Shown: positions 3,456 through 19,610 of the stretch, piece by piece
How positions within the stretch are numbered: position 1 is the first letter of the stretch
Layout: the number at the start of each line of letters is the position of its first letter
Virus record (IMG/VR): IMGVR_UViG_3300032246_001807
Coordinates: 1-21,340 of that record
Length of the DNA: 21,340 nt
Origin: a virus
Reading direction: 5' to 3' (one strand)
The notes under the pieces: model-generated
What the model was told of the DNA's origin: nothing
The model's database searches: none
Seen by the model: the letters and a program-made list of their open reading frames with translations, nothing else
Program-made: the position numbers and the translations under genes

Positions 3456-3686
3456 GTGATTATCAAAAAAATAGGTTATATTAGACGTATGTTAAGAGGC
3501 GAAGCGCATCCAATGCACAAATTGACTGAAGAGCAGATAATGCAAATCAGAGAACTATACCGAATTGGTCATAGGAATATTAATGTAATAGCTAGGAACT
3601 ATAAAGTTTCGCCTGCAAACATTAAAAAAATAGTTACTAACCAAACATGGACACATATGATAAAGTGGCCATACGAAAAAGTTTAA
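3456..3686 (+). CDS. Small helix-turn-helix protein
   Basis: This is a basic 76-aa protein. Its core, from HKLTEEQIMQIRELY to about residue 63, reads as a helix-turn-helix: an acidic first helix (LTEEQIMQIRELY), a turn, then IARNYKVSPANIKKIVTNQTW with the recognition helix. This pattern resembles the small DNA-binding domain often appended to phage HNH endonucleases (LTEEQV..IR, gVs...I..I..g.tW), but no nuclease domain is attached here. The start is uncertain. A GTG at 3456 gives 76 aa with a basic extension, and an ATG at 3489 gives 65 aa that still covers the helix-turn-helix. It could be a transcription factor or a remnant of a homing endonuclease. DNA binding is well supported by the pattern; the target is unknown. 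Confidence 0.68.
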   Translation: MIIKKIGYIRRMLRGEAHPMHKLTEEQIMQIRELYRIGHRNINVIARNYKVSPANIKKIVTNQTWTHMIKWPYEKV

Positions 3687-3852: not shown

Positions 3853-4617
3853 ATGAAAGAATTAAATAAGTTATATTGTGATACTTCCAAATTAGTCGTA
3901 AGACAAGTAAACAAAAACATAGCAAAAGATATTATTGTCAATAACCATTATAGTGGTATATGGACTAAGGTATCTTATGCTATTGGTTTGTTTCATGTTT
4001 CAAATGATGAACACAAATTCTTTGGTGGAGTAAACGAAAAACTTATTGGAGTAGCTTGTTATGGTGACCCGGTTGGTAGGCACTCAGGTGCATCTATTAG
4101 CGAAACATTGGATAGAACGGAAGTTTTAGAACTTACTCGTTTATTCGTATTTGATGGGTATGGTAGTAACATTGAGAGTTGGTTTGTTGGCAAATCATTT
4201 GAATGGTTAAGGGAAAACGCACCACAAATAAAAGCATTGGTTTCATATTCAGACCCAAAAGCAGGTCATTTAGGAACTGTATATCAAGCAACTAATTGGG
4301 TATATCAAGGAAATAGAATTAGACCAAATGATAGTTGGAGTTTCAAATGGAGTGAAGATGATGAGTGGCATCATAGTAGAACATCATTTGTAAGATATGG
4401 TACTAATGACCCAAAAGCAATTCAAACAATGGTATCAATGCCATTTTGGATTAAAAAAGAACCGAGAAAACATCGTTATGTTTATATACTTTTGAGTGGT
4501 AGAGAAAAAAAGAAATTATTAAAATCTTTAAAATACCCATCGTTACCATATCCAAAAGCAAAAGAGGAATTTATTGAAGAAATACATAAATTAGAACCAA
4601 TTGAAAGTAGAAAATAA
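3853..4617 (+). CDS. Mom-like DNA modification protein, copy 1
   Basis: This 254-aa protein resembles the phage Mu Mom family, GNAT-fold enzymes that modify adenine in DNA and protect it from restriction. Visible family features are an early His-Tyr (NNHYSG, 31-36), a core strand LIGVACYGDPVG (64-75), the ELTRL segment (93-97), and the signature SYSDPKAGHLGTVYQATNW (131-149) followed by a Tyr-Gln-Gly. The C-terminal block KHRYVYILL (206-214) ends in PYPK (232-235), as in other Mom-like proteins. The downstream gene is a clear paralogue: over the 60 residues from LTRL to YQG, 38 are identical. The chemistry in this phage is unknown. N6-(methylcarbamoyl)adenine is the Mu product, and a different acyl group is possible. 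The family assignment is by motif recognition only. Confidence 0.82.
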   Translation: MKELNKLYCDTSKLVVRQVNKNIAKDIIVNNHYSGIWTKVSYAIGLFHVSNDEHKFFGGVNEKLIGVACYGDPVGRHSGASISETLDRTEVLELTRLFVFDGYGSNIESWFVGKSFEWLRENAPQIKALVSYSDPKAGHLGTVYQATNWVYQGNRIRPNDSWSFKWSEDDEWHHSRTSFVRYGTNDPKAIQTMVSMPFWIKKEPRKHRYVYILLSGREKKKLLKSLKYPSLPYPKAKEEFIEEIHKLEPIESRK

Positions 4618-5404
4618 GTTATATTGTGATACAAGTAAAGTATCAATTAGAGAAATCAATAGTAATGTAGCCAAAGAGATTATTGTTAAAAAACATTATA
4701 CTCACGCTTGGACTGCTTGTAGATACGCATTAGGTATATTTTATAAAACCGATACCGAAAATGTAATTGGTGATGATGAAATCTTAATTGGATGTATGGT
4801 CTATGGGTTTCCCGTAGGAGCAAGAGCATCTACATCTGTATGTGAAGGATTGACTAAAGATAATATTTTGGAATTGACTCGTTTATATTGTGATGATGGA
4901 TATGGTTCAAATATAGAATCATACGCATTAGGGCAATCATTCAAATGGTTTAGAGAGAATGATAAGAATATTAAAGTACTTATTTCATATGCAGATAATG
5001 GGCAAGAACATTTGGGTGGAATATATCAAGCAACCAATTGGATTTATCAGGGGTTAAATACTGATATTGCTTTAATGCCAAATTATGGTATTTCATTATC
5101 AGATAGCCCATTTAAATGGATTCATAGTAGAACTGTATTTACAAAATGGGGTAGTGGTAATTTAGAACATCTTCGTAGAGAAATTGGTAAAGATGGTTAT
5201 AAACAATTTTGGAGAAGAGAAGAGCCGCCAAAGCATCGATATATACAAATCATAGGAGCAGACAAAAAAGATAAAAAAGATTTAATTAAGAGGTTAAAGC
5301 ATGAAGTTAGACCTTATCCTAAAAATGCAAGAGAATATAATAAAGGAATAGAACTCCACACTACAATAGAACCGGATTCAGAAATATCGGTTAAATTTTG
5401 GTAA
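4601..5404 (+). CDS. Mom-like DNA modification protein, copy 2
   Basis: This 267-aa protein is the tandem paralogue of the preceding Mom-like gene and overlaps its 3' end by 17 nt. The start is TTG at 4601. It is supported because the first residues (KVENKLYCDTSK) line up with the start of copy 1 (KELNKLYCDTSK), whereas the next in-frame ATG would remove the conserved His-Tyr (32-33). Other family features are ELTRL (91-95), SYADNGQEHLGGIYQATNW (129-147), YQG (149-151) and KHRYIQIIGA ending in RPYPK (237-241). It has a longer C-terminal tail than copy 1. The tail ends in SVKFW, a Lys-Phe-Trp motif that recurs at the N-termini of three other proteins here. It is predicted to modify DNA, perhaps with another sequence specificity or as a hetero-oligomer with copy 1; that is inference. 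Confidence 0.8.
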   Translation: MKVENKLYCDTSKVSIREINSNVAKEIIVKKHYTHAWTACRYALGIFYKTDTENVIGDDEILIGCMVYGFPVGARASTSVCEGLTKDNILELTRLYCDDGYGSNIESYALGQSFKWFRENDKNIKVLISYADNGQEHLGGIYQATNWIYQGLNTDIALMPNYGISLSDSPFKWIHSRTVFTKWGSGNLEHLRREIGKDGYKQFWRREEPPKHRYIQIIGADKKDKKDLIKRLKHEVRPYPKNAREYNKGIELHTTIEPDSEISVKFW

Positions 5405-5428
5405 ATCAAATAATTTTTTGTATATTCG
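5397..5428 (+). promoter_or_regulatory. Bacteroidota-type promoter upstream of the DruA-like gene
   Basis: TTTG at 5397-5400 and TATATTCG at 5421-5428 are separated by 20 nt. They match the Bacteroidota housekeeping promoter (-33 TTTG, -7 TAnnTTTG) except for one T-to-C change in the -7 box. The start codon at 5454 lies 25 nt downstream of the -7 box. The -33 element is formed by the last codons (Phe-Trp) of the preceding Mom-like gene. It could drive the DruA-like protein, the glycosyltransferase and the DNA polymerase. Confidence 0.6.
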
Positions 5429-5453
5429 TATACGAAGCATAATAATAAGCAAT

Positions 5454-6680
5454 ATGAAATTTTGGGATACAGGCGAACAAACCAATACGGAGCAGTTCGA
5501 TTACGAAGTGATGAAGAAAAAATTCATCGAAAACTTAGATTATCTAAGAACAATGTCAGTTGAAGAACAAACACTTTATAAAAAGTGGATGGAATGGAAT
5601 GAAGATTTGGCAGGTAATATGAAAAAATTGCCAGTTTTACAATCTCACTATGATTCCCTATGGAAACCTACTGATATAATGAATAAAGAATTAACAATCG
5701 CTGAAATTGAAGCAATTGACCCGTATGTTGAAATAGTAGATGATAATCCAAAAGAATCAACCCGATGGACAGAAATTCGTAGATTGATTCATACAATGGA
5801 GTTTCAGGCTAATCCAGGTCGTAATGTTAAGTGTTATGTAAAAGATAGAACAACTGGTAAGATATTAGGACAAATTTGTTTAGGTTCAGATATTACATCA
5901 TTGGGAGTTAGAGATGCATATATTGGATGGCAGAAAGAGGATAAGTTTCAAAATGGTAAATTAAATTGTACCACAATTGCAACTACTATCGTATCAACCC
6001 AACCATTTGGATATAACTTTTTAGGTGGTAAATTAATCGCAGCATTAGCAACTTGTCCTGAGATTAGAGATTTTTGGAAAAAGAAATATGATAATCCGTT
6101 AGTTGGCGTTGGTACTACATCTTTGTATGGTGTACATTCACAATATAATGGTATTCCGCATTTCAAAACATTAGGAGAATCTAAAGGTAAGATTTCAACA
6201 AAGCCAGATGATAAGGTATATGACCCATGGCATCAATGGTTAAAAGAAAATCGTTCCGAATGGTATAAAACACATATTATGGATGAGAGAGAACGTAATG
6301 GTGCCAATATGGGATATGAAAGAAACGGGCCTGTAAGTGGAATCAAACAAAAGATTATTCAGGCAATTTTCAAAGAATTGGGAATCAAAGGAAACGCTTA
6401 CGACCACGGATTCCAAAGAGGTGTATATTTTGCAAAAATGTATGAGAATGGTAATGAATTCTTACAATCTAAAATTGAAGAGAAGGATTTAGTTCTTAAA
6501 GAGAAGTTTGCGAAAGGAAATGAGTACACTATTAAATGGTGGAAAGATAAAGCAATCAAACGATATACTACATTATATAATGATGGAAGGATTAAACCTG
6601 AAGTTTTATTTTATGTAAATGCAATAGGAATGACTTGGGAACAAATGAAGGATAATTATTTAAAAGAAGTGGGAAGATAG
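5454..6680 (+). CDS. DruA/DUF4338-like protein, probable DNA-modification enzyme
   Basis: This 408-aa protein has a central segment resembling the DUF4338/DruA family, known from the Druantia anti-phage system and from phages. ILGQICLGSD (137-146) is followed by RDAYIGW (153-159), NFLGGKLIAAL (188-198), and a block reading VGVGTTSLYG then QYNGI and a conserved GES (217-243). Layout and motifs parallel the Mom-like proteins just upstream (strand plus Gly, then a SY/TSLYG strand, then a YxA/YNG helix), so a shared GNAT-like core is possible but unproven. About 120 N-terminal residues and 150 basic C-terminal residues flank the domain. I chose the ATG at 5454 because an earlier ATG at 5418 lies inside the promoter, and because this start gives the MKFW N-terminus shared with the next gene. 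The reaction is unknown. Genomic context favours a role in DNA modification rather than an imported defence system. Confidence 0.66.
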   Translation: MKFWDTGEQTNTEQFDYEVMKKKFIENLDYLRTMSVEEQTLYKKWMEWNEDLAGNMKKLPVLQSHYDSLWKPTDIMNKELTIAEIEAIDPYVEIVDDNPKESTRWTEIRRLIHTMEFQANPGRNVKCYVKDRTTGKILGQICLGSDITSLGVRDAYIGWQKEDKFQNGKLNCTTIATTIVSTQPFGYNFLGGKLIAALATCPEIRDFWKKKYDNPLVGVGTTSLYGVHSQYNGIPHFKTLGESKGKISTKPDDKVYDPWHQWLKENRSEWYKTHIMDERERNGANMGYERNGPVSGIKQKIIQAIFKELGIKGNAYDHGFQRGVYFAKMYENGNEFLQSKIEEKDLVLKEKFAKGNEYTIKWWKDKAIKRYTTLYNDGRIKPEVLFYVNAIGMTWEQMKDNYLKEVGR

Positions 6681-6681
6681 T

Positions 6682-7797
6682 ATGAAATTTTGGGAAACAT
6701 CATTAGATTTTAGTAAAGCACGGAAAGTATTAGTAATACCAAATATAACTAATTCTGGAAATATTGAAAAAGATTCATTTGTTGATGTTATCTATAATCA
6801 TATTAAAGGGTTAGAAGGAAAGGAGCAATTCTTTTGGAATATCATATTACCTCAGCCCGTTAAAAAATTAAATTTAGAAAACGTTAAACAACATATCATC
6901 CAATTTTCAGGAGATATGATTAAAATGAGAACATATCCACCTGATATGAATCGTTTATTGGAAACATTGGATTATGATGTTATCTATTCGCATTTACCCG
7001 ATTGGCCACAAGTTGGTAGATATAAGAACGATTTTAATACAAAAATTATTGGATATTGCCATTGGTGGGAAATGAAATCCTGCAATGCCGAAGATAGAAA
7101 GAATAAGTGGAGATGGATGCCGATTGAATTATTGGGAGTATCTCAAATGGAAACTTGCTTTATCAATACACAAGAACAAAAAGATAGAGTATTAGAAGAA
7201 GCTAAACTTTGGTTTAATGCTGAAATGATTGATAAATTAAATGATATATTAGTTGTTTGGAATTTAGGTGTAGATAATTCTAAAATAATAGAATTACCAA
7301 AGCCAAAAGAAAAAATAATCGTATTCAATCATAGAGCAGCTGCTTATAAAGGGTATCCTACATTCATTAGATTGATGGAAGAATATCGTATAAAAAGAAA
7401 CGATTTTAAAGTTTGGGTGCCACAATTAGATGGAAAGCCCGAACATAGTTGGATTGATAATACAAAAGTAGCAAAGCATGATTACTATACAAAATTACAA
7501 TCTTGTACTGTTGGTGTTCAAATGAGGCAAACGAATTATGGATGGAGTGTAGCAGCTACGGATTGTATGATGAATGGAACTCCTATGATATATCAGGAAT
7601 CAGATTGTTATAGAGAAATAGAACCAAACGGATTATTTTTTAAATTCAAAAAAGATTTATTTGAAATGTTAGATAAATTATTGGATGATGAAAATTATAG
7701 AAATGAAAAATCTATAAAAAGTATTGAAAGAGCTAGGGAACTATCTTTGAATGATAGTAAGATGATTGAAATTTTAAAAAATAAACTAAAAGCATAA
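6682..7797 (+). CDS. GT-B type glycosyltransferase, possibly acting on phage DNA
   Basis: This 371-aa protein has the two-domain pattern of GT-B glycosyltransferases. An N-terminal Rossmann-like half starts with the strand KVLVIPN (15-21) and contains VIYSHLPDWPQVG (100-112). The donor-binding half starts with IIVFNHRAAAYKGYPTFIRLM (212-232) and carries YGWSVAATDCMMNGTPMIYQ (286-305), the position of the family GT4 E-x7-E region, with Asp rather than a second clear Glu. It lies 1 nt after the DruA-like gene, shares its MKFW N-terminus, and overlaps the DNA polymerase by 1 nt (TAATG). This position, apart from the later glycosyltransferase cluster, suggests it decorates DNA bases, as T4 glucosyltransferases do. 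The substrate cannot be read from the sequence; a glycan or protein acceptor remains possible. Confidence 0.72.
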   Translation: MKFWETSLDFSKARKVLVIPNITNSGNIEKDSFVDVIYNHIKGLEGKEQFFWNIILPQPVKKLNLENVKQHIIQFSGDMIKMRTYPPDMNRLLETLDYDVIYSHLPDWPQVGRYKNDFNTKIIGYCHWWEMKSCNAEDRKNKWRWMPIELLGVSQMETCFINTQEQKDRVLEEAKLWFNAEMIDKLNDILVVWNLGVDNSKIIELPKPKEKIIVFNHRAAAYKGYPTFIRLMEEYRIKRNDFKVWVPQLDGKPEHSWIDNTKVAKHDYYTKLQSCTVGVQMRQTNYGWSVAATDCMMNGTPMIYQESDCYREIEPNGLFFKFKKDLFEMLDKLLDDENYRNEKSIKSIERARELSLNDSKMIEILKNKLKA

Positions 7798-10352
7798 TGT
7801 ACCAAAATATTTATTACGAAAGACAGAAGAATCTCATACACTTATGGGATGATAAGAGTGGGTATCAAACAATGCCATACCGAAAATATGCTTATAAGAA
7901 AGACCCACATGGTCAATATCAATCAATGTATGGTGATAGATTAACAAAAGTTGGTAAATGGGAAAAGGAAGAATCGGATGATTTATTTGAATCAGATATT
8001 CCAGAAACAACAAGAGTATTAGTAGATATTTACGATAATGATTTACCATCAAAGGGACATAGAGTAATGACTTTTGATATTGAGGTAGAAATGATTACGG
8101 GGTTACCATCTACAAGGGAGGCACAAAATGAAATTACAGCAATTGCATCACACGATGGTGCAACAAAACTATACGATGTATTCGTACTAGATAAACAAAG
8201 AAAAATTAAAAAAAATGCCAAACCTTTTACAAAGGATGGGAGAGAAGTTACTCTTCACGTTTTCGATAACGAGAAAAATCTTTTACTTGCATTCCTTAAT
8301 TATTACGAAGAAGTTAATCCAACTATTCTCACCGGATGGAATATAGATTTCTTTGATATTCCGTATTTGTATAACCGATTAAAGAATATAGTTGGAGAAG
8401 GAAATGCACGTAGATTATCCCCAATCGGCCAGACATTTTATTCACCATATAGAGAGAAGTGGAGTATTGGTGGTGTGAGTATTTTGGATTATATTAATTT
8501 ATATAAAACGTACACATATTCATTGGAAGCATCGTATACTTTAAACTACATAGCTACACAGGAATTGGGTAGAGGTAAGATTGAGTATGAAGGAAGTTTA
8601 GATGATTTGTTTGAGAACGATTTAGAGAAATTTATTGAGTATAACATTGTCGATGTGGACTTGGTTGTAGCAATGGATGAGAAACTTCAATTCATCGAAT
8701 TATGTAGGGCGGTGTGTCACTCTGGATTTGTACCATATGAAGATTACATTTATTCTTCAAAGTGGTTAGAAGGAGCTTGTTTAGCATATCTTAAAACTAA
8801 GGGATTAGTAGCAACTAATAAACCAAAGGATAGAAAGGAAAGAATGCAAGCATTGCGAGATAATAATCAGGAGAAGTTTATTGGAGCATATGTAAAAGAA
8901 CCCATTGTTGGCAAGTATGATTGGATTTATGATTTGGATTTAACATCACTATACCCATCAATCATTATGACCCTAAACATCAGTCCTGAAACAAAGATTG
9001 GTAAGATTCAAAATTGGGATGCAGAGGCAAATATCAAAGGATTAGATACGACATATAAAGTAGTAGGTAAAGATGGCGATGAGTACTCATATACGACTCA
9101 GGAGTTGAAGGAAGTTATTAAGGATAGTAACTTAGGTGTTGCAGCAAATGGAGTTCTTTACAATCAAGATAAACCCGGTCTAATCGCAGATATTCTTAAC
9201 ACTTGGTTTGATAAACGTGTAGAGTTCAGAAAGTTGGAGAAAAAATATGGTGAAGCTGGTGATACTGAAAAATATGAATTTTACGCCAAACGTCAATTAG
9301 TTCAAAAGATTCTTTTGAACTCAATGTATGGTGTATTAGGTTTGCCGGCATTCCGTTTCTATGATGTGGATAACGCTGAGGCAGTTACGCTAACAGGTCA
9401 GACTGTTATTAAGAAAACTGCTGAAATGGCTAATATTAAATATTGGAAAGAATTGGGTACAAAAGATGATTACAATGTGTACATCGATACGGATTCAATT
9501 TATATGATGGCCGAACCATTGGTAAAACATCGTTATCCAAATTACAAAGAGTTTGATGAAAAGAGAATGGCAGTTGAAGTGGATAACATTGCAACCGAAA
9601 CACAAACATTCTTAAACTCATTCTATGATATATTAGCAGAACGATTCTTTTTTATTCCAAAAGATAAACATAGATTTGAAATAAAAAAGGAGTTTATCAG
9701 TAAAGCAGGATTTTGGGTAGCTAAGAAACGATATGCACAATGGATGATTTTAAAGAATGGTATTCCGTGTGATAAGTTGGATGTAAAAGGATTGGATGTA
9801 GTTCGTTCTTCATTCCCCAAAGCATTTCAGGACTATATGAGTGGTATGTTAAAAGATATTCTAATGGGTAAAGATAATGATTATGTTGATACAAAATTAT
9901 TAGATTTCAAAAAGAGTATGATTAATCTCCCAGTTAATAAAATAGCAAAAGGTGGAGCAATTAAAGAATTGAGTAAATATGATAATGGTACTTGGAAAGT
10001 TGGGCAAGCAGTTGGTTCATTTGAAAAAGGTACGCCTGCACACGTTAAAGCCGGAATCACCTATAATAGATTATTAAAATATTTCAATTGTCCATACAAA
10101 CACGAACCTATTAGAGATGGTGATAAGGTAAAGTGGGTGTATTTAAAAAATAATCCATTAGGATTAGAAACTATCGCATTTAAAGATTATAATGACCCAT
10201 CCGAAATATTGGAGTTTGTTGAAAATTATGTAGATAGAGATATGATTTTTAAAGCAGAGTTAGAAAATAAAATTGATGATTTCTATACTGCATTGAAGTG
10301 GGATAAGGTAACAATGGAAACAAAAACAGCAAAAAAATTCTTCGCATTTTAA
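7797..10352 (+). CDS. 43: Family B DNA polymerase, T4 gp43-like
   Basis: This is the replicative DNA polymerase with 3'-5' proofreading (851 aa; T4 gp43 is 898). Exonuclease motifs are ExoI FDIE (93-96), ExoII GWNIDFFD (180-187, Asn182 and Asp187) and ExoIII YNIVD (282-286). Polymerase motifs are A, DLTSLYPSI (381-389, catalytic Asp381), B, KILLNSMYG (504-512), and C, YIDTDS (562-567, Asp564 and Asp566), with a KKRY block further on. All catalytic residues are present, so the enzyme should be active. The last residues are AKKFFAF. T4-type polymerases bind the sliding clamp through an aromatic C-terminal tail, so this is the likely clamp contact. The ATG overlaps the upstream stop by 1 nt. An SGNH-like gene lies between this gene and the clamp. 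Confidence 0.97.
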   Translation: MYQNIYYERQKNLIHLWDDKSGYQTMPYRKYAYKKDPHGQYQSMYGDRLTKVGKWEKEESDDLFESDIPETTRVLVDIYDNDLPSKGHRVMTFDIEVEMITGLPSTREAQNEITAIASHDGATKLYDVFVLDKQRKIKKNAKPFTKDGREVTLHVFDNEKNLLLAFLNYYEEVNPTILTGWNIDFFDIPYLYNRLKNIVGEGNARRLSPIGQTFYSPYREKWSIGGVSILDYINLYKTYTYSLEASYTLNYIATQELGRGKIEYEGSLDDLFENDLEKFIEYNIVDVDLVVAMDEKLQFIELCRAVCHSGFVPYEDYIYSSKWLEGACLAYLKTKGLVATNKPKDRKERMQALRDNNQEKFIGAYVKEPIVGKYDWIYDLDLTSLYPSIIMTLNISPETKIGKIQNWDAEANIKGLDTTYKVVGKDGDEYSYTTQELKEVIKDSNLGVAANGVLYNQDKPGLIADILNTWFDKRVEFRKLEKKYGEAGDTEKYEFYAKRQLVQKILLNSMYGVLGLPAFRFYDVDNAEAVTLTGQTVIKKTAEMANIKYWKELGTKDDYNVYIDTDSIYMMAEPLVKHRYPNYKEFDEKRMAVEVDNIATETQTFLNSFYDILAERFFFIPKDKHRFEIKKEFISKAGFWVAKKRYAQWMILKNGIPCDKLDVKGLDVVRSSFPKAFQDYMSGMLKDILMGKDNDYVDTKLLDFKKSMINLPVNKIAKGGAIKELSKYDNGTWKVGQAVGSFEKGTPAHVKAGITYNRLLKYFNCPYKHEPIRDGDKVKWVYLKNNPLGLETIAFKDYNDPSEILEFVENYVDRDMIFKAELENKIDDFYTALKWDKVTMETKTAKKFFAF

Positions 10353-10353
10353 T

Positions 10354-11100
10354 ATGAATAGTTTAAAATTTTGGAATCCAGAAGGATATGATATAGCAAG
10401 TTACAAATGGTTATTAGAAGAACGTGCCGATAAAGAAATATTAGGAAATGGGTCTGATAGTGGTAATTGCTACTATTCATTTAATGAATTAGGATTTAGA
10501 GGAGATTCCCCTAAAAAACGTGGTATAAAATTTATGTCAGTTGGATGTGAGCATACCGAAGGTATTAATGTACACAATCATCAGACTTGGCCGCATTTAG
10601 TTTCAAGAATGATTCCAAATGGAGTTGATTTAAATTTGGGTATTAATGGTAGAAGTAATGATTATATAGCTAGAAGTATACTAACTTGGACTGATTATTT
10701 TAAACCGGCATTGGTATTAATAATGTACACATATCCACATCGTAAGGAATTTTATTTAGATAATGGTAATGTAGAACCATATGCACCAAAACCTTGGGGA
10801 TATTTTGATGAGGAAATGGAAGGCAGACAAATGTGGAGTAATTTAACATATTCATCTAATAAAGAAGAGAATTTAATGAATTGGTATAAAAATCATTTAT
10901 TAATTTCAAATTATTTAAAAGCAAAAGATATTCCATTTATTTGGAATGGTACATTTGTGCAAACTGATTATACAGATGAACAAAGATTTGATGGTGAATA
11001 TCCATATTTTGAAGATATAAATAAACATGCAACGGATTATCAAAATGAAATTTACGCTAAAAAATTATTCAATCATATGAAAGAAAATTTTGAAATGTAA
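10354..11100 (+). CDS. SGNH-hydrolase-like protein with a replaced nucleophile
   Basis: This 248-aa protein has the organisation of phage SGNH/GDSL-type proteins. NELGFRGD (44-51) leads into the block I strand FMSVGCEHTEG (60-70), block II NLGINGRSND (94-103), and the strand LVLIMYTYPHR (120-130). The C-terminal DINKHA (221-226) matches the catalytic Asp-x-x-His. In block I the position expected to hold the nucleophilic Ser is Glu66 (GCEHTEG; compare GCSFTEG in the protein at 14237). The enzyme may therefore be inactive as a hydrolase or may use a different mechanism, for example as a binding protein. The N-terminus MNSLKFW carries the Lys-Phe-Trp motif found in three other proteins of the window. 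It starts 1 nt after the polymerase stop. The substrate is unknown. Confidence 0.66.
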   Translation: MNSLKFWNPEGYDIASYKWLLEERADKEILGNGSDSGNCYYSFNELGFRGDSPKKRGIKFMSVGCEHTEGINVHNHQTWPHLVSRMIPNGVDLNLGINGRSNDYIARSILTWTDYFKPALVLIMYTYPHRKEFYLDNGNVEPYAPKPWGYFDEEMEGRQMWSNLTYSSNKEENLMNWYKNHLLISNYLKAKDIPFIWNGTFVQTDYTDEQRFDGEYPYFEDINKHATDYQNEIYAKKLFNHMKENFEM

Positions 11101-11157: not shown

Positions 11158-11871
11158 ATGAACAAAAACAATCTATTAAGATTTATTCAGAAGTATTCGT
11201 TAGGTGGACTAATCGAATCAGTAGCATGGAACGCGGAAGGAAACAAACTATCAGTTCGTTTTATTTCAGATGACAAAACCCTATTGGGAGAAGTAGAATT
11301 TAATGCATTCACTTCAAAAGGATTTAATGTAGGTATTTATACAACATCATTATTGAAAAATATGATTGGAGTATTAGATAGTGATATTGCATTAAAAGTA
11401 GATTTAGCAGGAGATAAAGCAGTATCATTAAAATTGAGTTCAGATGAAACTGAAACATCTTATCAATTGGCGGATTTAGGAGTTATTCCACCTGTGCCAG
11501 ATTTAAAGCAATTACCTGAATTTGGTATTGATATTGAAATGGCATCTAATATGATTGATAAGTTTATCAAAGCAAAAGGAGCATTAAGTGATATCGATAC
11601 ATTTACAATCTTTACCGAAGGTGGTGATTTGAAAATGGCAATTGGTTATTCATCAATTTCTACAAATAGAGTAACATTTATTTGCCAGAAAGGATTTGCA
11701 GGTGAAATCAAACCAATCTCATTCTCAGCAAAGTATCTTAAAGAAATCCTTACTGCAAATAAAGAAGCAACATCAGCAAAATTAAGTGTATCTACTGATG
11801 GTTTATCACACGTTGGTTTTCAAATTGATGACTTTGTTTGTAAGTATTATTTAGTAGAAATTTCAAATTAA
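11158..11871 (+). CDS. 45: Sliding clamp, T4 gp45-like
   Basis: This 237-aa protein is close in length to T4 gp45 (228 aa) and reads as two clamp-type repeats of alternating strands with a linker around VIPPVPDLKQLPEFG. The second half begins with an IEMASNMIDKFIKAKG helix and ends in ISFSAKYLKEILTANK, a typical clamp helix before the last strands. The trimeric ring would tether the polymerase to DNA and, in T4, also couples late transcription. Sequence similarity to T4 gp45 is too weak to prove by eye. The call rests on length, strand pattern and neighbours: polymerase upstream, and gp44-like and gp62-like clamp loader genes downstream. It has its own promoter, fitting the high clamp demand of T4-like phages. 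Confidence 0.78.
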   Translation: MNKNNLLRFIQKYSLGGLIESVAWNAEGNKLSVRFISDDKTLLGEVEFNAFTSKGFNVGIYTTSLLKNMIGVLDSDIALKVDLAGDKAVSLKLSSDETETSYQLADLGVIPPVPDLKQLPEFGIDIEMASNMIDKFIKAKGALSDIDTFTIFTEGGDLKMAIGYSSISTNRVTFICQKGFAGEIKPISFSAKYLKEILTANKEATSAKLSVSTDGLSHVGFQIDDFVCKYYLVEISN

Positions 11872-12595: not shown

Positions 12596-13543
12596 ATGAG
12601 TTTTTTCGCAAACGAAAATAGTAAAAAAGAACATACTTTGTGGGTGGAGAAATACCGCCCACAAACGTTATCCGAATATGTTGGAAACGACATGATTAAG
12701 GAAACCATTCAACAATATCTTGATAGTAACGATATTCCGCATTTACTTTTTTATGGTAAAGCGGGTACGGGTAAAACCACACTTGCTAAACTAATCGTAA
12801 ATACAATCAAATGTGACTTTATGATTATCAACGCATCGGATGAAAACAATGTGGATACTGTTAGAACAAAAGTTAAGAACTTTGCATCATCAGTTGGATT
12901 TGCAGGTTTCAAAGTAATCATCTTAGATGAGTTTGATTATATGACACCCGGAGCACAAGCAATTTTGAGAAACTTAATGGAAACATTCAGTAAGCATTGT
13001 AGATTTATCTTAACCTGTAATTACATTGAGAAAATCATTGACCCTATTCAAAGTAGATGTCAATCTTTCGCAATCACACCTCCAACTAAAAAGGATGTAG
13101 CGGTTCAAGTAGCAAAGATATTAGATGCTGAAAAGATTAAGTATGAACCAAAGAATATGGCTGATGTGATTAATTCATATTATCCAGATATTAGAAGAAT
13201 ACTTAATACTTGTCAATTACAATCTGCAAAAGGTGAATTGAAAGTAGACCATAAAGTAATGGTTGAAGCAAACTTTGCAACTAAACTTATTGAACTTTTA
13301 AAATCAGAAGATGATAAGAGAAATATCTTTATGCAAATTAGACAGGCAGTAGCGGATAACAAATTAAATGATTATTCGGAAATGTATACTATGCTTTATG
13401 ATAAAGTAGATGAGTATGCAAAAGGAAACGTAGCCAATACAATTCTTACAATAGCTGAAGGATTATCAAAAGATGCTTTAGTAGTTGATAAGGAAATTGT
13501 ATTTATGAGCACAATTATTCAAATTTTAAATATAATAAAATAA
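12596..13543 (+). CDS. 44: Clamp loader ATPase subunit, T4 gp44-like
   Basis: This is an AAA+ clamp loader large subunit (315 aa; T4 gp44 is 319) that opens the sliding clamp and places it on primed DNA. It shows the clamp-loader box WVEKYRP (16-22), Walker A GKAGTGKT (54-61), Walker B VIILDEFD (107-114, with the T4-type DEFD), a sensor 1 region ILTCNY (138-143) and the SRC motif with the arginine finger (QSRC, 152-155). A helical collar domain follows. It starts 1 nt after dUTPase. The N-terminus MSFFANE is more hydrophobic than in T4 gp44. It would work as a 4:1 complex with the gp62-like protein encoded two genes downstream. Confidence 0.96.
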   Translation: MSFFANENSKKEHTLWVEKYRPQTLSEYVGNDMIKETIQQYLDSNDIPHLLFYGKAGTGKTTLAKLIVNTIKCDFMIINASDENNVDTVRTKVKNFASSVGFAGFKVIILDEFDYMTPGAQAILRNLMETFSKHCRFILTCNYIEKIIDPIQSRCQSFAITPPTKKDVAVQVAKILDAEKIKYEPKNMADVINSYYPDIRRILNTCQLQSAKGELKVDHKVMVEANFATKLIELLKSEDDKRNIFMQIRQAVADNKLNDYSEMYTMLYDKVDEYAKGNVANTILTIAEGLSKDALVVDKEIVFMSTIIQILNIIK

Positions 13544-13785
13544 TGGAACAACAAGCACAAATCCCAATGAATTTTTCATTGAACGATGCAAGAGATATCA
13601 ATTGCGAATGTGGTAGTGGTGTATTTATGCCAGGTATGAAATTCAAAAAAGTATCCCGTTTAATTACAGGTGGAGCTAAAGATTCAATTATTCCTATTGA
13701 AGTATTTTTATGTACTCAATGTGGTAAAACATTGCAAGAATTATTGCCAGAGGAATTGAGAGAAAAACAATCAATCGCAGAATAA
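13543..13785 (+). CDS. Small zinc-ribbon-like phage protein
   Basis: This 80-aa protein contains a Cys-x-Cys (C21, C23, in NCECGSG) and a Cys-x-x-Cys-Gly (C57, C60, in FLCTQCGK). The four cysteines are placed to bind one zinc as a zinc ribbon, separated by about 33 residues that include a basic strand segment (MKFKKVSRL) and a Gly-rich loop. The C-terminus is acidic and helical (LQELLPEELREKQ). It overlaps the gp44-like gene and the gp62-like gene by 1 nt each (TAATG), so it is made from the same message as both clamp loader subunits. I do not know a named function. Candidates are a replication accessory, a transcription factor or a structural zinc protein; context favours replication. Confidence 0.72.
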   Translation: MEQQAQIPMNFSLNDARDINCECGSGVFMPGMKFKKVSRLITGGAKDSIIPIEVFLCTQCGKTLQELLPEELREKQSIAE

Positions 13786-14237
13786 TGGCAGTTAAAAAGT
13801 TATTTGACCACATCAATGCAATAACTTCGGAGCAAGACCCAAAGTATTTCGATAAATTGACAGAAGAGGATTTAAAATCATGGAGTAATTTTATGATAAA
13901 TCGTTTTCTGTCAATGAAACCGGATTGGGTTGAATTAGTTGCAACTTTACTTCCTTTGACTCAAACTCTACAACCAAAAGAAATGTATAAATTATATATT
14001 AGCTTAATTCCAAAAGGAAAGCATTATTTAAAATACATTAAAGGTAAGGGTGAAGATAAGTATGAAGATTTTCTCATAGAACTTATGAAGAAAGATTACC
14101 TATGTTCAGAAAGACAAGCACTTGATTATATAGAAGTTCTTTATGCAAGTAGAGAAGGTAGAGAGCACATGAAGTATGTATGTGAAAAGTATGGAGTAGA
14201 TAAGAAACAAATTACTAAATTAAAATTAAAAATATAG
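13785..14237 (+). CDS. 62: Clamp loader small subunit, T4 gp62-like
   Basis: This 150-aa protein resembles T4 gp62 (187 aa), the fifth, non-ATPase subunit of the clamp loader. The recognisable parts are FMINRFLSMKPDW (about 37-49; T4 gp62 has a similar FMxNxALSxxP) and YISLIPKGKHYLKYIK (70-85; gp62 has a similar MAAVPRGKRYGKW). A helical C-terminal collar contains a KxYxxxxxxAxxY pattern (about 104-117) shared with gp62. It would stabilise the gp44 ring and stimulate its ATPase. It is shorter at both ends than T4 gp62. Position after the gp44-like gene, separated only by the zinc protein, agrees with T4 gene order. The call is by motif and context and is fairly firm. Confidence 0.82.
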   Translation: MAVKKLFDHINAITSEQDPKYFDKLTEEDLKSWSNFMINRFLSMKPDWVELVATLLPLTQTLQPKEMYKLYISLIPKGKHYLKYIKGKGEDKYEDFLIELMKKDYLCSERQALDYIEVLYASREGREHMKYVCEKYGVDKKQITKLKLKI

Positions 14238-15091
14238 TGAATAAAAAATATTTGGTAACTAATGGGTGCTCATTCACAGAAGGGCATATGTTGGGTAATG
14301 AAGGTGCTTGGCCTAAATTTTTAGGTGAAAAAATGGATATGGAAGTTATAAACATTGGGAAAGGTGGTAGTGGAAATGATACTATAACTTGGAGAACAAT
14401 TGAATTTTCAGAAACAAATAAAGATATAGCAAAAGATTCATTATATGTAATTCAATTAACAGAATGTTTACGATATCAGGTATATTACGATAATTTAATA
14501 AAAGACCCACAAGAGTGGCATGTTACACCATTATGCTTTCAAAGAACAATGGATTCTTACAAATATGGAAATGAGGCTTCTAAATGGATTTATAAAAATA
14601 GAGAAGAATTAATTTTTATTTATAGCAATATAACTTTTGCATTATATAAGACTTTACAAAATATTATAACATTAGTTTCTTATTTTGAAGCACATAATTA
14701 TCCATATATTATATTTGATGGTATTAATGACCACAAACCATTTAAATATGAAAATTCTTATTATTTAAAAGAATCAAATTCGGATAATATAAATCCTGAA
14801 TTTAAAATAAAAACATCATTGGATGTAATAGACCCAGATGATTATGATAAAAATATTACTCGTAGGGATAATGGATATTTTATAGATGAAAGATTAATAA
14901 ATAGTATATTTAATAATCCTAAATTTTTTAAAGAAATTCCGGTATTATTGAAATATTTTATGGAAAAAGGAGAATCGGAACATACTGATAGAGATTATTA
15001 TTTTAAAGGAAATGGCGGCCACCCAAACGTAGAAGCTTGTAATATTTGGGCAGATATTTTAAAAAAATATATAGAACAATTAAATTACTAA
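14237..15091 (+). CDS. SGNH/GDSL hydrolase-like protein
   Basis: This 284-aa protein starts with GTG at 14237, overlapping the gp62-like stop by 1 nt. Block I, TNGCSFTEG (8-16), contains the expected nucleophile Ser12. Block II is INIGKGGSGND (39-48), with oxyanion Gly44. FDGINDH (160-166) follows a central strand. GGHPN (260-264) supplies the catalytic His262, where the usual Asp three residues before is Asn259. Aromatic Tyr/Trp-rich middle segments (about 75-150) differ from classic esterases. Phage members of this superfamily are mostly uncharacterised; sugar or acyl-ester hydrolysis on surface polysaccharide or on modified glycans is plausible beside glycosyltransferase genes. Compared with the protein at 10354 it keeps the nucleophile. 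Substrate and activity are not determined. Confidence 0.72.
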   Translation: MNKKYLVTNGCSFTEGHMLGNEGAWPKFLGEKMDMEVINIGKGGSGNDTITWRTIEFSETNKDIAKDSLYVIQLTECLRYQVYYDNLIKDPQEWHVTPLCFQRTMDSYKYGNEASKWIYKNREELIFIYSNITFALYKTLQNIITLVSYFEAHNYPYIIFDGINDHKPFKYENSYYLKESNSDNINPEFKIKTSLDVIDPDDYDKNITRRDNGYFIDERLINSIFNNPKFFKEIPVLLKYFMEKGESEHTDRDYYFKGNGGHPNVEACNIWADILKKYIEQLNY

Positions 15092-16038: not shown

Positions 16039-17424
16039 ATGGCAAAAAAGAAAAAGATTCTATTACTTTCGGATGATTTAAGAATGACTAGCGGTATAGC
16101 CAATGTATCTAAACAATTGGTGCTAGGGACAGTAGATAAATATGATTGGGTTCAATTAGGAGCAGCAATCAAACATCCAGATTCCGGAAAGATATTTGAT
16201 TTAAATGATAGTATTAGAGAAACCACAGGTGTGGCTGATGCAAATGTAAAATTATATCCATCCGATGGATATGGTAACCCAGATGTAATCAGACAATTAT
16301 TAATGGCAGAAAAACCTGATGCTATCTTACACTTTACTGACCCAAGATATTGGATTTGGTTATATGAGATTGAGCATGAAATTCGCCAATCAGTTCCTTT
16401 ATTCTTTTACCATATATGGGATGATTTACCAGACCCAAAATACAATAGAGATTATTATGAAAGTTGTGATTGGATTGGATGTATTTCAAAACAAACTTAT
16501 GGTATTACCCGTAGAGTTTGGAGTTGGGATAAAGAAAAACATTGGGCCAAACCTGCTGATTGGCAAGTAAGTTATGTACCACATGGTATCAATTCTGAAT
16601 TATATAAACCAGTTGATGTACCACAAGATTTTAAACAAAGTATCTTTGGCGATAAAGAATATGAATTTGTTCTTTATTGGAATAATAGAAACATTCGTAG
16701 GAAACAAGCGATTGATGTTATTCTTGCATTTGATAAATTTGTCGAAGCATTACGACCAGAGGATAGAGATAAGGTATGTTTGTTAATGCATACACAGCCC
16801 GTTGAAGAGCATGGTACTGATTTACCAAGAACAATTGAAGAATGTTGTTCACCTGAAACAAATGTAATGTTTGCACCAAATAAATATAGTGAAGAACAAT
16901 TGAATCTTCTTTATAATATAGCAGATGTTACAATCAATGTAGCATCCAACGAAGGATTTGGATTAGCAACTGCTGAATCGGTAATGGCTGGGACTCCAAT
17001 TATTGTAAACGTAACCGGTGGTTTGCAAGACCAATGTGGATTCAGAGATAAAGGTACGGGTAAATTATTAACTGCGGAAGATTATGTAGAGATTGGTTCT
17101 TTACATGACAGACATAAAAAAGCAGGTGTAGTTTGGGGAGATTGGGTTAAACCAATTTGGCCAGTTCGTTCAACAACAGGTTCAGTTCCTACTCCATATA
17201 TCTTTGATGATAGAATTGATTTTGAAGATATTACTCCTCTAATTATGGATTTTTATAAAATGGGAAGAGAAGAAAGAAAAGCTGCTGGATTAAAAGGTAG
17301 AAAGCATTTCTTAGGAGATGGCAAATTAAGTAAAGAAGCTATGTGTGATGCATTAGTAGAAGGTATGGAAGGTGCATTTGCAAATTGGAAACCAAAAGAA
17401 AAATTTAAATTAATAGAGTTATAG
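16039..17424 (+). CDS. Glycosyltransferase, GT-B fold, family 4-like
   Basis: This 461-aa protein has an N-terminal Rossmann-type domain beginning KKKILLLSDDLRMTSGIA (4-21), with the Gly-rich acceptor loop. The second domain includes EFVLYWNNRNIRRKQ and the family 4 donor-site motif NEGFGLATAESVMAGTPII at about 304-322 (E-x7-E). Both glutamates and the Gly-rich GLQDQ follow-on are intact, so it should be active with a nucleotide sugar. It has no signal peptide or membrane segment, so it is cytoplasmic. It starts 27 nt after the nuclease and ends 1 nt before the next glycosyltransferase. The acceptor (DNA, virion protein or host glycan) is unknown. Clustering with several other transferases implies stepwise assembly of a larger sugar decoration. 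Confidence 0.88.
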   Translation: MAKKKKILLLSDDLRMTSGIANVSKQLVLGTVDKYDWVQLGAAIKHPDSGKIFDLNDSIRETTGVADANVKLYPSDGYGNPDVIRQLLMAEKPDAILHFTDPRYWIWLYEIEHEIRQSVPLFFYHIWDDLPDPKYNRDYYESCDWIGCISKQTYGITRRVWSWDKEKHWAKPADWQVSYVPHGINSELYKPVDVPQDFKQSIFGDKEYEFVLYWNNRNIRRKQAIDVILAFDKFVEALRPEDRDKVCLLMHTQPVEEHGTDLPRTIEECCSPETNVMFAPNKYSEEQLNLLYNIADVTINVASNEGFGLATAESVMAGTPIIVNVTGGLQDQCGFRDKGTGKLLTAEDYVEIGSLHDRHKKAGVVWGDWVKPIWPVRSTTGSVPTPYIFDDRIDFEDITPLIMDFYKMGREERKAAGLKGRKHFLGDGKLSKEAMCDALVEGMEGAFANWKPKEKFKLIEL

Positions 17425-17425
17425 T

Positions 17426-18694
17426 ATGAAACCAACATTAGTATTTCAAGCACCAATAGCAACGAGAAGTGGATATGGTGACCACGCAAGAGATTTATTA
17501 CATTCTCTATATAAATTAGATAAATTTGAAATCAAAGTTATTAGTACTCGTTGGGGTTCGACTCCAATGGATGCACTTAACTATGATAAACCATTTCATA
17601 AATGGATAGTAGATAGTATTATTCCAAAAATTGAACAAAAGCCAGATATATACATTCAGGTAACTGTACCAAATGAATTCCAACCTGTTGGGTTTTATAA
17701 CATTGGTATTACTGCGGCAATTGAAACAACACATTCTCCATTGGATTGGATACATGGTTGTAACCGAATGGATTTAATTATAGTTCCATCCGAGCATTCA
17801 AAAAAGAGTTTAGTAGATTCAATTTATAATGAAGCTGATAATCAAACTAAACAATTAATTGCACAGCATAAAATTCAAAAACCAGTTGAGATTCTTTTTG
17901 AAGGATTTGATGAAGAAGATTTTGGAACTGAGCATGTTGCACATATTAACGAATTGGATTCAATCAAAGAAGATTTCGCATTCTTATTTGTAGGACATTG
18001 GTTAAGGGGTGATTTGGGTGAAGATAGAAAGAATGTGGGAATGATGATTAAAACATTTGCAATGGCATTCAAAAATGAAAAGATTAAGCCAGCATTAGTT
18101 CTTAAAACCAGTTCAGCAGGGTTTAGTGTATTAGATAGAGAAACAACTATTAAAAAAATAAGACAAGTATTGGGTAAAGATTATGGTAAAGTTCCAATTT
18201 ATCTTTTACATGGCGATTTAACTCCATCGGAAATGAATGGGTTATACGAACATCCAAAAGTAAAGTCAATGTTGAATTTTACAAAAGGTGAAGGATTTGG
18301 TAGACCGCTATTAGAATTTAGTTTAACAGGTAAGCCTGTAATTGTATCCAATTGGAGTGGACATGTTGATTTCTTAAAACAGGGTGCAGTATTATTAGAA
18401 GGTGAGTTGAAGCCGGTACACGAATCCGCAGCTGACCAATTCCTTTTAAAAGAAGCACAATGGTTTAATGTGAATATTTCAAAAGCATTATCATCTATAA
18501 AAGATGTTTATAAGAATTATGATAGATATAAAACAGCATCTTTTCAATTGGGTAAACAAAACAAACAAAATTTTGGATTAGAAAAAATGACTAAATTGTT
18601 TGATAACATTTTAAATCAATATGGTATTTATACTAAAGTACAACCAAAGTTTCAACAACTTCAGTTACCTAAACTAAAAATGTTAAATAAATAA
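17426..18694 (+). CDS. Glycosyltransferase, GT-B fold, family 4-like
   Basis: This 422-aa protein resembles the preceding gene in organisation but not closely in sequence. It starts with PTLVFQAPIATRSGYGDHARDL (3-24), the nucleotide-sugar transferase N-terminal Gly loop. The C-terminal domain contains FLFVGHWLRGDLGEDRKN, and TKGEGFGRPLLEFSLTGKPVIVSNW at about 284-308, the donor-binding E-x7-E region. A lysine-rich C-terminus follows. No membrane segment or signal is visible. It overlaps the next gene by 1 nt (TAATG). It probably adds a second sugar in the same pathway as the upstream enzyme. Donor and acceptor cannot be inferred. Confidence 0.87.
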   Translation: MKPTLVFQAPIATRSGYGDHARDLLHSLYKLDKFEIKVISTRWGSTPMDALNYDKPFHKWIVDSIIPKIEQKPDIYIQVTVPNEFQPVGFYNIGITAAIETTHSPLDWIHGCNRMDLIIVPSEHSKKSLVDSIYNEADNQTKQLIAQHKIQKPVEILFEGFDEEDFGTEHVAHINELDSIKEDFAFLFVGHWLRGDLGEDRKNVGMMIKTFAMAFKNEKIKPALVLKTSSAGFSVLDRETTIKKIRQVLGKDYGKVPIYLLHGDLTPSEMNGLYEHPKVKSMLNFTKGEGFGRPLLEFSLTGKPVIVSNWSGHVDFLKQGAVLLEGELKPVHESAADQFLLKEAQWFNVNISKALSSIKDVYKNYDRYKTASFQLGKQNKQNFGLEKMTKLFDNILNQYGIYTKVQPKFQQLQLPKLKMLNK

Positions 18695-19167
18695 TGAGTA
18701 ATTTTAATCCAATATATCGTAAATTTATAGATGATAAAAGTATAATTTCCCCAAACAAAATAACTAGGGGAAATTTTTACATGATAAAAGAATATACATA
18801 TGTGGATGGTACTAAAGGTAGATTTACTGAAACAACTTCGCCCATAATATACACATTATTTGTATCACAGCCAAAAAATATTATCCATTGTGTTAAAGTT
18901 TCAAATGTTAATCCAAACGTAATTAAAAAATTCTTTGGTAAATTTGTAAATGAACAAACTGAAATGTTACAAATGAGAGGAGGAGCTAAAGACTTTTATT
19001 CAAAAATAGTTAGTAAAGTTCCAGTTGTGACAAATGATGCATATCGTACATATCTTATAAGTGGATTAGGTAAAGTTTTAAAATTATCAATGGATGTAAA
19101 TGAAATCACTCCTAAGACTGTTAATGTAATCGGTATAGATTCAAAATCACAATTAAAAAATAGATAG
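18694..19167 (+). CDS. Unknown protein within the glycosyltransferase cluster (157 aa)
   Basis: I do not recognise this protein. It is basic, with a mostly beta N-terminal half (NFYMIKEYTYVDG, PIIYTLFVSQPKNIIHCVKVS) and a helical middle (NVIKKFFGKFVNEQTEML). A small basic segment follows (GAKDFYSKIVSKV, about 98-110). The conserved-looking KVSNVNPNVIKKFFGKF segment (about 68-84) could bind nucleic acid or a partner. It has no signal peptide, membrane helix or Cys pair. The ATG at 18694 overlaps the preceding glycosyltransferase by 1 nt; a second ATG at 18781 would remove the first 29 residues. A stem-loop lies between these starts (18744-18775). It may be a structural or DNA-associated protein unrelated to the transferases around it. 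Confidence 0.68.
   Translation: MSNFNPIYRKFIDDKSIISPNKITRGNFYMIKEYTYVDGTKGRFTETTSPIIYTLFVSQPKNIIHCVKVSNVNPNVIKKFFGKFVNEQTEMLQMRGGAKDFYSKIVSKVPVVTNDAYRTYLISGLGKVLKLSMDVNEITPKTVNVIGIDSKSQLKNR
18744..18775 (+). other. Stem-loop with T-run inside the 5' part of a coding region
   Basis: A perfect 9-bp inverted repeat (AATTTCCCC at 18744-18752 and GGGGAAATT at 18767-18775) encloses a 14-nt A-rich loop and is followed by TTT. It has the form of an intrinsic terminator or attenuator but lies 50 nt inside the gene starting at 18694 and just before an internal in-frame ATG at 18781. It could attenuate transcription or control which start codon is used. It might also be a chance structure, although runs of four C and four G are uncommon in this AT-rich DNA. 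Confidence 0.4.
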
Positions 19168-19169
19168 TT

Positions 19170-19610
19170 ATGACATCAAACGAATTTGTCCTTTGGTTAA
19201 AAGGATTTACAGAGGGAGTACATGAATTTAATATCACTCCAAAACAATGGGATATATTAAAAGATAAATTAGCAGAAGTAGAAGATAAAGTATTAATCTT
19301 GGAATCACCAAAATTTCCATTTGGAGTTCCGAATACTGCGCCAATACAAACATTGCCATTTATCCAACCACATAATCCATATAACCCATTTCAAATAACT
19401 TGTGGTAGTGGTTCATCTGGAACAACAATAACAACAACACCAGGTGGTGGTTCTATTACATACGCAACACCGCAATTTGTAACATCAACTGCGTATGGGT
19501 ATCCTAGTGGTAGTGCATGGAGTTATACGAATAATACATATAATCCACCATATACAACAGGCGGAGAAGATGAAACTATAAAAACATCTACTGACGAAAA
19601 AATATTTTAA
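19170..19610 (+). CDS. Phage protein with conserved N-terminal helical domain and low-complexity tail
   Basis: This 146-aa protein has two parts. Residues 1-38 (EFVLWLKGFTEG, then TPKQWDILKDKLAEV) match a small helical domain I associate with many tailed phages, F-x-x-W-L-K-G-F followed by a Q-W-x-x-I/L-x-x-x-L helix; its function is not established. Residues about 45-146 are low complexity, rich in Pro, Thr, Ser, Gly, Tyr and Asn, with stretches such as TTTPGGGS and AYGYPSGSAW, ending in a short acidic tail. The tail looks disordered and Thr/Ser-rich, so it could be a glycosylation acceptor given the neighbouring transferases, but this is inference. No signal peptide is visible. The gene overlaps the next one by 1 nt. 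Confidence 0.72.
   Translation: MTSNEFVLWLKGFTEGVHEFNITPKQWDILKDKLAEVEDKVLILESPKFPFGVPNTAPIQTLPFIQPHNPYNPFQITCGSGSSGTTITTTPGGGSITYATPQFVTSTAYGYPSGSAWSYTNNTYNPPYTTGGEDETIKTSTDEKIF

What the first reader, a model, noticed from the sequence alone, without database searches (positions are those of the whole stretch)
3853..7797. Four-gene DNA-modification block: two Mom-like paralogues, a DruA/DUF4338-like protein and a glycosyltransferase
Two adjacent Mom-like enzymes, a DruA-like protein whose motifs parallel Mom's (TSLYG..QYNG versus SY.D..GH.G..YQAtNW), and a GT-B transferase sit head to tail directly upstream of the DNA polymerase. I know of Mom as a single gene in Mu; a duplicated Mom next to a Druantia-family protein and a sugar transferase would be a compound base-modification pathway. 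One reading is that Mom-like enzymes acylate adenine, the DruA-like protein modifies a second position or base, and the transferase adds sugar. Seen: motifs and order. Known: Mom modifies adenine; DruA belongs to a defence system. Inferred: that they act together on phage DNA.
Basis: partly seen in the sequence, partly recalled or inferred. Interest (0 to 1): 0.82.

Follow-up and report, generated by a model that had tools for sequence, protein, structure and literature searches.

The report
Phage DNA-modifying enzymes sharing docking tags
An uncultured T4-like virus of bacteria carries two sister DNA-altering Mom enzymes, a third enzyme of similar shape and a sugar-attaching enzyme, and three of these four end or begin with the same tiny tag found on its DNA polymerase, suggesting that the enzymes ride on the DNA-copying machine and chemically mark phage DNA as it is made.

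Summary
The genes are real. Both Mom paralogues match Pfam Mom (E ~4e-44; Mom2 model matches the Mu Mom crystal structure) and keep Mu S124 and D149. The third gene is a DruA/DUF4338 protein (E 3e-19); its model is a GNAT-like fold whose first non-self viral family with a known function is Mom (Foldseek E 7e-4). The fourth is a GT-B-type glycosyltransferase with only weak Pfam support. Multiple Mom genes per phage and DUF4338-as-GNAT are already published; here the tandem is one old duplication, conserved in 82 of 86 relatives carrying both. The unexpected result is a short terminal Phe-Trp/Phe-Phe motif. Mom2 ends in FW (80 of 81 relatives FW/YW), DruA begins MxFW/FF (62 of 62), and the glycosyltransferase begins MxFW/FF (44 of 60, absent from one subfamily). 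Among 113 ORFs conserved between two ~195-kb relatives only these three carry terminal FW. The same type of motif (FF) ends the DNA polymerase (KKFFAF) and begins the clamp loader gp44. Best reading: replication-docked DNA modification, probably through the sliding clamp. Docking, the sugar step and the DruA-like chemistry are inferred, not shown.

The parts
3456..3686 (+). HTH-type small protein (76 aa), conserved just upstream of mom1
   Evidence: Pfam HTH_7 E 1e-4; usually present directly before mom1 in relatives
3853..4617 (+). Mom1: Mom-family acyltransferase paralogue without terminal FW tag
   Evidence: PF25680 E 4.4e-44; 8bv8 (Mu Mom) E 3e-10; Mu S124 = S109, D149 = D134
4601..5404 (+). 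Mom2: Mom-family acyltransferase paralogue with extra C-terminal tail
   Evidence: PF25680 E 4.7e-44; model pLDDT 84.9 matches 8bv8 E 4e-13; Mu S124 = S107, D149 = D132
5396..5404 (+). Mom2 C-terminal tag ...KFW-stop on a low-confidence tail
   Evidence: FW in 79 and YW in 1 of 81 homologues; last residues pLDDT 49
5454..6680 (+). DruA/DUF4338-like protein, GNAT-like fold related to Mom (likely true start; ORF open from 5418)
   Evidence: PF14236 E 3e-19; PADLOC DruA1 E 6e-21; model pLDDT 87.9; Foldseek GNATs and Mom
5454..5468 (+). DruA-like N-terminal tag MKFWD
   Evidence: FW in 59 and FF in 3 of 62 homologues; residues 1-10 pLDDT 43
6682..7797 (+). GT-B-type glycosyltransferase in an exchangeable slot
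   Evidence: PF00534 E 1e-4, PF13439 E 1e-3, both below cut-off; alternative ~30%-identical types in relatives
6682..6696 (+). Glycosyltransferase N-terminal tag MKFWE
   Evidence: FW 42 and FF 2 of 60 homologues; absent in a subfamily that starts directly at MRVLVIPNYTNF
7797..10352 (+). Family-B DNA polymerase (gp43-like); C-terminus KKFFAF at 10332-10349
   Evidence: phrog_262 E 1e-181; C-terminal FF motif in 97% of 68 relatives
11158..11871 (+). Sliding clamp (gp45-like), divergent
   Evidence: phrog_947 processivity factor E 1e-3; relatives hit phrog_223 processivity factor to 5e-14
12596..13543 (+). Clamp-loader ATPase gp44-like; N-terminus MSFFAN
   Evidence: phrog_168 E 2e-85; N-terminal FF in 85-89% of 47 relatives
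13785..14237 (+). Clamp-loader small subunit gp62-like (no tag)
   Evidence: PF16790 E 2e-9

Best explanation
A replication-docked DNA-modification cassette of a T4-like phage. Mom1 and Mom2 (an old tandem duplication, both with catalytic residues kept) acylate adenine in phage DNA, as Mu Mom does. The DruA-like protein is a third GNAT/Mom-fold enzyme that probably acts on nucleic acid too. A glycosyltransferase occupies an exchangeable slot beside them. Mom2, the DruA-like protein and the glycosyltransferase carry a short flexible terminal F-W/F motif of the type seen at the C-terminus of the same phage's DNA polymerase and the N-terminus of its clamp loader. I infer that this motif docks them on the replisome, most likely on the sliding clamp, so that new DNA is marked as it is made and before host nucleases meet it. 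Mom1 lacks the motif and may be recruited by pairing with Mom2. Shown by sequence and models: family membership, catalytic residues, Mom-like fold, conservation, motif distribution, low-confidence (probably disordered) tails. Inferred: clamp binding, pairing of Mom1 and Mom2, DNA as substrate of the DruA-like protein and the glycosyltransferase, and protection from restriction.
For: Mom family and fold; catalytic residues; single duplication with both copies monophyletic (100/98 and 99/97); tandem in 82 of 86 loci with both. DruA-like fold. Terminal motif; of 40 gene families in relatives only DruA, polymerase, gp44, GT, Mom2 and one SGNH family have it conserved at a terminus, and of 113 ORFs conserved between two ~195-kb records only Mom2, DruA and GT have terminal FW (chance that all three fall in the four genes singled out beforehand: 4/C(113,3) = 1.7e-5, counted by hand). 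FW and FF interchange within DruA and GT, which fits one protein motif. Tails have low model confidence. Mu, Lupine and CRP-902 Mom end at or a few residues after PYPK; Mom2 has ~30 extra residues. Precedent: gp45 is bound by short hydrophobic, acidic termini of gp43, gp55 and gp33 (PMC2988020), and T4 alpha-glucosyltransferase, a DNA-modifying enzyme, binds gp45 (PMC13216743, citing Sommer 2004).
Against: No binding was tested; no complex prediction could be run. The T4 motif (LDFL type, PMC9690074) is not the same string as FW. PMC13216743 found that clamp binding of alpha-GT does not mainly set glucosylation levels. Phe codons in the motif are TTT in 176 of 180 cases against 88% in internal FW and 65% overall, so some nucleotide-level pressure is possible. 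Cyanophage and pelagiphage DruA-like proteins and S-SSM7 Mom lack FW. Mel-JY01 gp44 lacks the N-terminal FF. The family-level count alone is modest (binomial P about 1e-3, computed for six families although only five reach 50% under the stricter pattern used there) and the pattern was defined after looking.
Confidence: 0.45

Rival explanations
1. Mom1 and Mom2 modify phage adenine, but the DruA-like protein and the glycosyltransferase are independent neighbours; the terminal FW motif docks them on something else (each other, host RNA polymerase, a host protein) and is not about DNA modification.
For: The GT slot is exchangeable and one GT subfamily has no motif; DruA-like genes occur without Mom in pelagiphages; in one clade DruA and GT stand about 20 kb from the Mom pair (L039 and L062 are the same record); several other glycosyltransferases lie at 16039-21340.
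Against: Even when separated from Mom, DruA and GT stay inside the clamp / clamp-loader cluster, and the motif is shared with the polymerase and gp44.
Confidence: 0.3
2. One reading: Mom acylates adenine, the DruA-like protein modifies a second site and the glycosyltransferase adds a sugar to the product.
For: Gene order; Mom-like fold of the DruA-like protein; shared terminal tag.
Against: No Pfam DNA-glucosyltransferase match; no hydroxymethyl-base route found in relatives; some relatives show no homologue of this GT beside the Mom genes at the threshold used; DruA is not always adjacent.
Confidence: 0.15
3. The phage DruA-like protein is a counter-defence decoy that interferes with the host's Druantia system.
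For: Matches PADLOC DruA1 E 6e-21; no other Druantia component in the window.
Against: Sits in the replication gene cluster across distant T4-like phages and carries the same tag as Mom2; conserved internal residues suggest an enzyme.
Confidence: 0.07
4. The terminal FW reflects a nucleotide signal (for example an mRNA or DNA site containing TTTTGG) rather than a peptide.
For: Phe codon nearly always TTT in DruA, GT and Mom2 (baseline).
Against: FF variants break the site; the polymerase end uses TTC TTC; D/E codons and the codons before Phe vary; the sites lie both at gene starts and at a gene end.
Confidence: 0.05

Closest known systems
Mu Mom (PF25680; PDB 8bv8)
   Same: Sequence family, GNAT-type fold, S124 and D149 equivalents kept in both paralogues
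   Different: Two paralogues in tandem, no com-type control gene recognised, Mom2 has a ~30-residue tail ending FW, genes belong to a T4-like replication cluster
Multi-Mom jumbo phages such as PA5oct (PMC7824862)
   Same: Several Mom enzymes in one phage
   Different: That paper describes jumbo-phage Mom domains as typically fused to endonuclease domains; here stand-alone paralogues beside DruA-like and GT genes, with a terminal tag
DruA of Druantia type I (PF14236 / DUF4338)
   Same: Family match; DUF4338 called a GNAT domain in PMC10853773; DruA-like proteins reported in Synechococcus phages in PMC12774648
   Different: No other Druantia genes; located in a phage replication cluster; carries N-terminal FW
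T4 alpha-glucosyltransferase bound to gp45 (Sommer 2004, cited and repeated in PMC13216743)
   Same: A DNA-modifying enzyme held by the sliding clamp
   Different: Acts on hydroxymethylcytosine; no sequence relation to these proteins detected; clamp binding here is only inferred
gp43/gp55/gp33 clamp-binding C-termini of T4-like phages (PMC2988020, PMC9690074)
   Same: Short hydrophobic terminal motif; the polymerase of this phage ends KKFFAF
   Different: LDFL-type string in T4; here F[FW], also at N-termini

Membership tests
Mom (PF25680) | Profile match over the domain | tested here: met
   E 4.4e-44 and 4.7e-44
Mom (PF25680) | Fold of Mu Mom | tested here: met
   Mom2 model vs 8bv8 E 4.4e-13, TMt 0.72
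Mom (PF25680) | Catalytic Ser (S124A is the inactive crystallised mutant) and Asp 149 | tested here: met
   S109/S107 and D134/D132; the role of D149 is from memory
Mom (PF25680) | Modifies adenine N6 in DNA | not testable with these tools
   Needs LC-MS of virion or plasmid DNA
DruA / DUF4338 protein family | Profile match | tested here: met
   PF14236 E 3e-19; PADLOC DruA1 E 6e-21
Druantia defence system | Companion genes including the large DruE helicase | tested here: not met
   No such ORF in the window; the largest ORF is the 851-aa polymerase
GNAT superfamily (DruA-like protein) | GNAT fold | tested here: inconclusive
   Nearly all top PDB hits are GNATs but E 0.01-0.2; Mom in the viral library E 7e-4; an acyl-CoA site was not checked
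T4-type DNA glucosyltransferases | AGT or BGT family match | tested here: not met
   Only weak general GT hits; profile search of solved structures empty
gp45-type clamp-binding peptide | Short hydrophobic, acidic flexible terminus | tested here: met
   MxFW[DE] and ...E...KFW termini; pLDDT 43 and 49
gp45-type clamp-binding peptide | Binds the sliding clamp | not testable with these tools
   No complex prediction offered; needs an assay

The most novel reading that the evidence does not exclude
A lineage of T4-like phages tags several unrelated DNA-modifying enzymes (a Mom acyltransferase, a DruA-like Mom-fold enzyme and a glycosyltransferase) with one sliding-clamp docking peptide, making base modification part of the replisome; DUF4338/DruA would then be a nucleic-acid-base-modifying acyltransferase family, which would also bear on what DruA does in Druantia.
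Probability: 0.35. Interest if true: 0.8.

Novelty: new variant of a known kind. Interest (0 to 1): 0.6.

Why it matters
How phage modification enzymes find new DNA before host nucleases do is poorly understood outside T4 (from general knowledge). A shared, portable docking peptide on modification enzymes would be directly testable, would help pick out unknown modification genes in uncultured phages by their termini, and would give a first functional handle on the DUF4338/DruA family.

Tried and rejected
Profile-profile comparison of the DruA-like and Mom alignments found no homology, so the relation rests on fold only. The PDB sequence search for the DruA-like protein gave only chance hits, and for the GT family nothing. 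The clamp found no PDB relative even as a profile; its identity rests on PHROG matches and position. Thymidylate synthase in two relatives was checked as a possible hydroxymethylase: it has the ordinary PFNIASY motif. TET/JBP search empty, but the control did not ring either, so this is not proof of absence. A paper search for DruA together with Mom found nothing. A two-sequence alignment meant as a clamp comparison used the wrong coordinates and was discarded. A nucleotide signal as cause of the FW motif was considered and judged unlikely. The cultured relative nearest by polymerase, Microcystis phage Mel-JY01 (49%), has no Mom or DruA match, so it offers no direct test system.

Full report
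Observation. The four ORFs are as described, head to tail and directly before a family-B DNA polymerase. Mom1 and Mom2 match Pfam Mom at E ~4e-44, the third ORF matches DruA at E 3e-19, and the fourth has only weak glycosyltransferase matches below the curated cut-offs (PHROGs). The DruA-like gene most likely starts at 5454 rather than 5418. The window is a 21,340-base fragment of a virus record. The following genes are clamp, dUTPase, clamp loader large and small subunits and more, so this is a T4-like replication cluster. Its polymerase is closest among cultured phages to Microcystis phage Mel-JY01 at 49%, which itself has no Mom or DruA match.

Relatives. IMG/VR holds many close relatives. 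Of 86 loci with both full-length Mom genes, 82 have them within 400 bases; the DruA-like gene follows Mom2 within 200 bases in 32 of 64 loci that hold both; the GT gene adjoins DruA downstream in 24 and upstream in 13 of 58 (some loci are overlapping pieces of one record, so these are not independent counts). In other clades DruA lies beside the clamp, and in one clade the Mom pair is about 20 kb away on the same record (L039 and L062). In cyanophage S-SSM7 the DruA-like gene lies between gp44 and gp62; in pelagiphages it lies in the T4-like gene block some way from the clamp and clamp loader genes. The GT position is an exchangeable slot with types only ~30% identical.

Mom paralogues. A maximum-likelihood tree puts all Mom1 in one clade (100/98) and all Mom2 in another (99/97), so the duplication is older than the sampled phages; long outgroup branches are flagged by the program. 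The crystallised inactive Mu mutant is S124A; the equivalent Ser is kept in both (S109, S107), as is Asp 149. The Mom2 model matches 8bv8 with E 4e-13. Some relatives carry a third, ~200-aa Mom elsewhere.

DruA-like protein. A model from 40 sequences has mean pLDDT 87.9. Against the PDB nearly all leading hits are GNATs, each weak. Against viral models, after its own kind and three uncharacterised giant-virus proteins, the first named family is Mom (E 7e-4). Sequence profiles show no link. PMC10853773 had already called DUF4338 a GNAT domain, and PMC12774648 reported DruA-like proteins in Synechococcus phages. One cyanophage DruA-like gene is deposited as 'methylcarbamoylase mom' (H85).

Terminal motif. 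Mom2 ends in FW in 79 (YW in 1) of 81 distinct homologues; the DruA-like protein begins with MxFW in 59 and with FF in 3 of 62; the GT begins with FW in 42 and FF in 2 of 60. GT relatives without it include a subfamily that starts directly at the first strand (MRVLVIPN), so it is an added N-terminal piece. In 40 gene families of the relatives, a conserved terminal F[FW] occurs in DruA, DNA polymerase (C-terminal KKFF[AS]F, 97%), gp44 (N-terminal MSFFAN, 85-89%), GT, Mom2 and, less clearly, an SGNH-like family; not in the clamp, gp62, nrdA and others. The tails have low model confidence (pLDDT 43 and 49).

Interpretation. In T4 the clamp is bound by short hydrophobic, acidic termini of polymerase, gp55 and gp33 (PMC2988020), and alpha-glucosyltransferase binds the clamp (PMC13216743). 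By analogy I read F[FW] as the clamp- or replisome-docking peptide of this lineage. This is inference; no binding was tested. A codon bias at the Phe (TTT in 176 of 180) leaves room for a nucleotide-level component, but the polymerase uses TTC TTC and FF variants exist.

Glycosyltransferase. DNA as its substrate is supported only by the shared tag and position. No hydroxymethylated-base route was found in relatives (the TET/JBP search had no positive control), and no known DNA-glucosyltransferase family matches.

Verdict. A well-conserved, replication-linked modification cassette of known enzyme types in a combination I found no report of, with a new and testable docking hypothesis. New variant of a known kind.

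Noticed in passing
window 3456-3686: A 76-aa HTH protein is usually present directly upstream of mom1 in relatives; it resembles the HTH part of homing endonucleases or resolvases. Possible regulator or DNA-binding partner.
   Followed up: partly
L053, L064, L069, L072, L077, L023 (about 200-aa ORFs): A third, more distant Mom-family gene (~29-41% identical) stands near but apart from the tandem in some relatives.
   Followed up: partly
L024:5704-7035, L051:4546-5880, L052:11247-12605, L104:2954-4288, L131:8864-10207: Glycosyltransferases in the same slot carry an extra C-terminal piece of ~70 aa with no Pfam match that looks winged-helix-like by eye.
   Followed up: partly
window 10354-11100 and 14237-15091: Two SGNH/DUF6071-like proteins interleaved with replication genes; the first begins MNSLKFW, an FW near the N-terminus shared by half of its 10 relatives (YW in others shown).
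   Followed up: partly
window 16039-21340: A run of further glycosyltransferases (GT-B and GT2 types) without the terminal FW tag.
   Followed up: no
L250-L327 (pelagiphage-type DUF4338): N-termini share a different aromatic string, roughly EKQWxx[WF], which could be that lineage's own docking peptide; HTVC008M has two DruA-family loci.
   Followed up: no
PQ898602.1 (hit H85): A cyanophage DruA-like gene is deposited as 'methylcarbamoylase mom', an independent annotation linking the two families.
   Followed up: no
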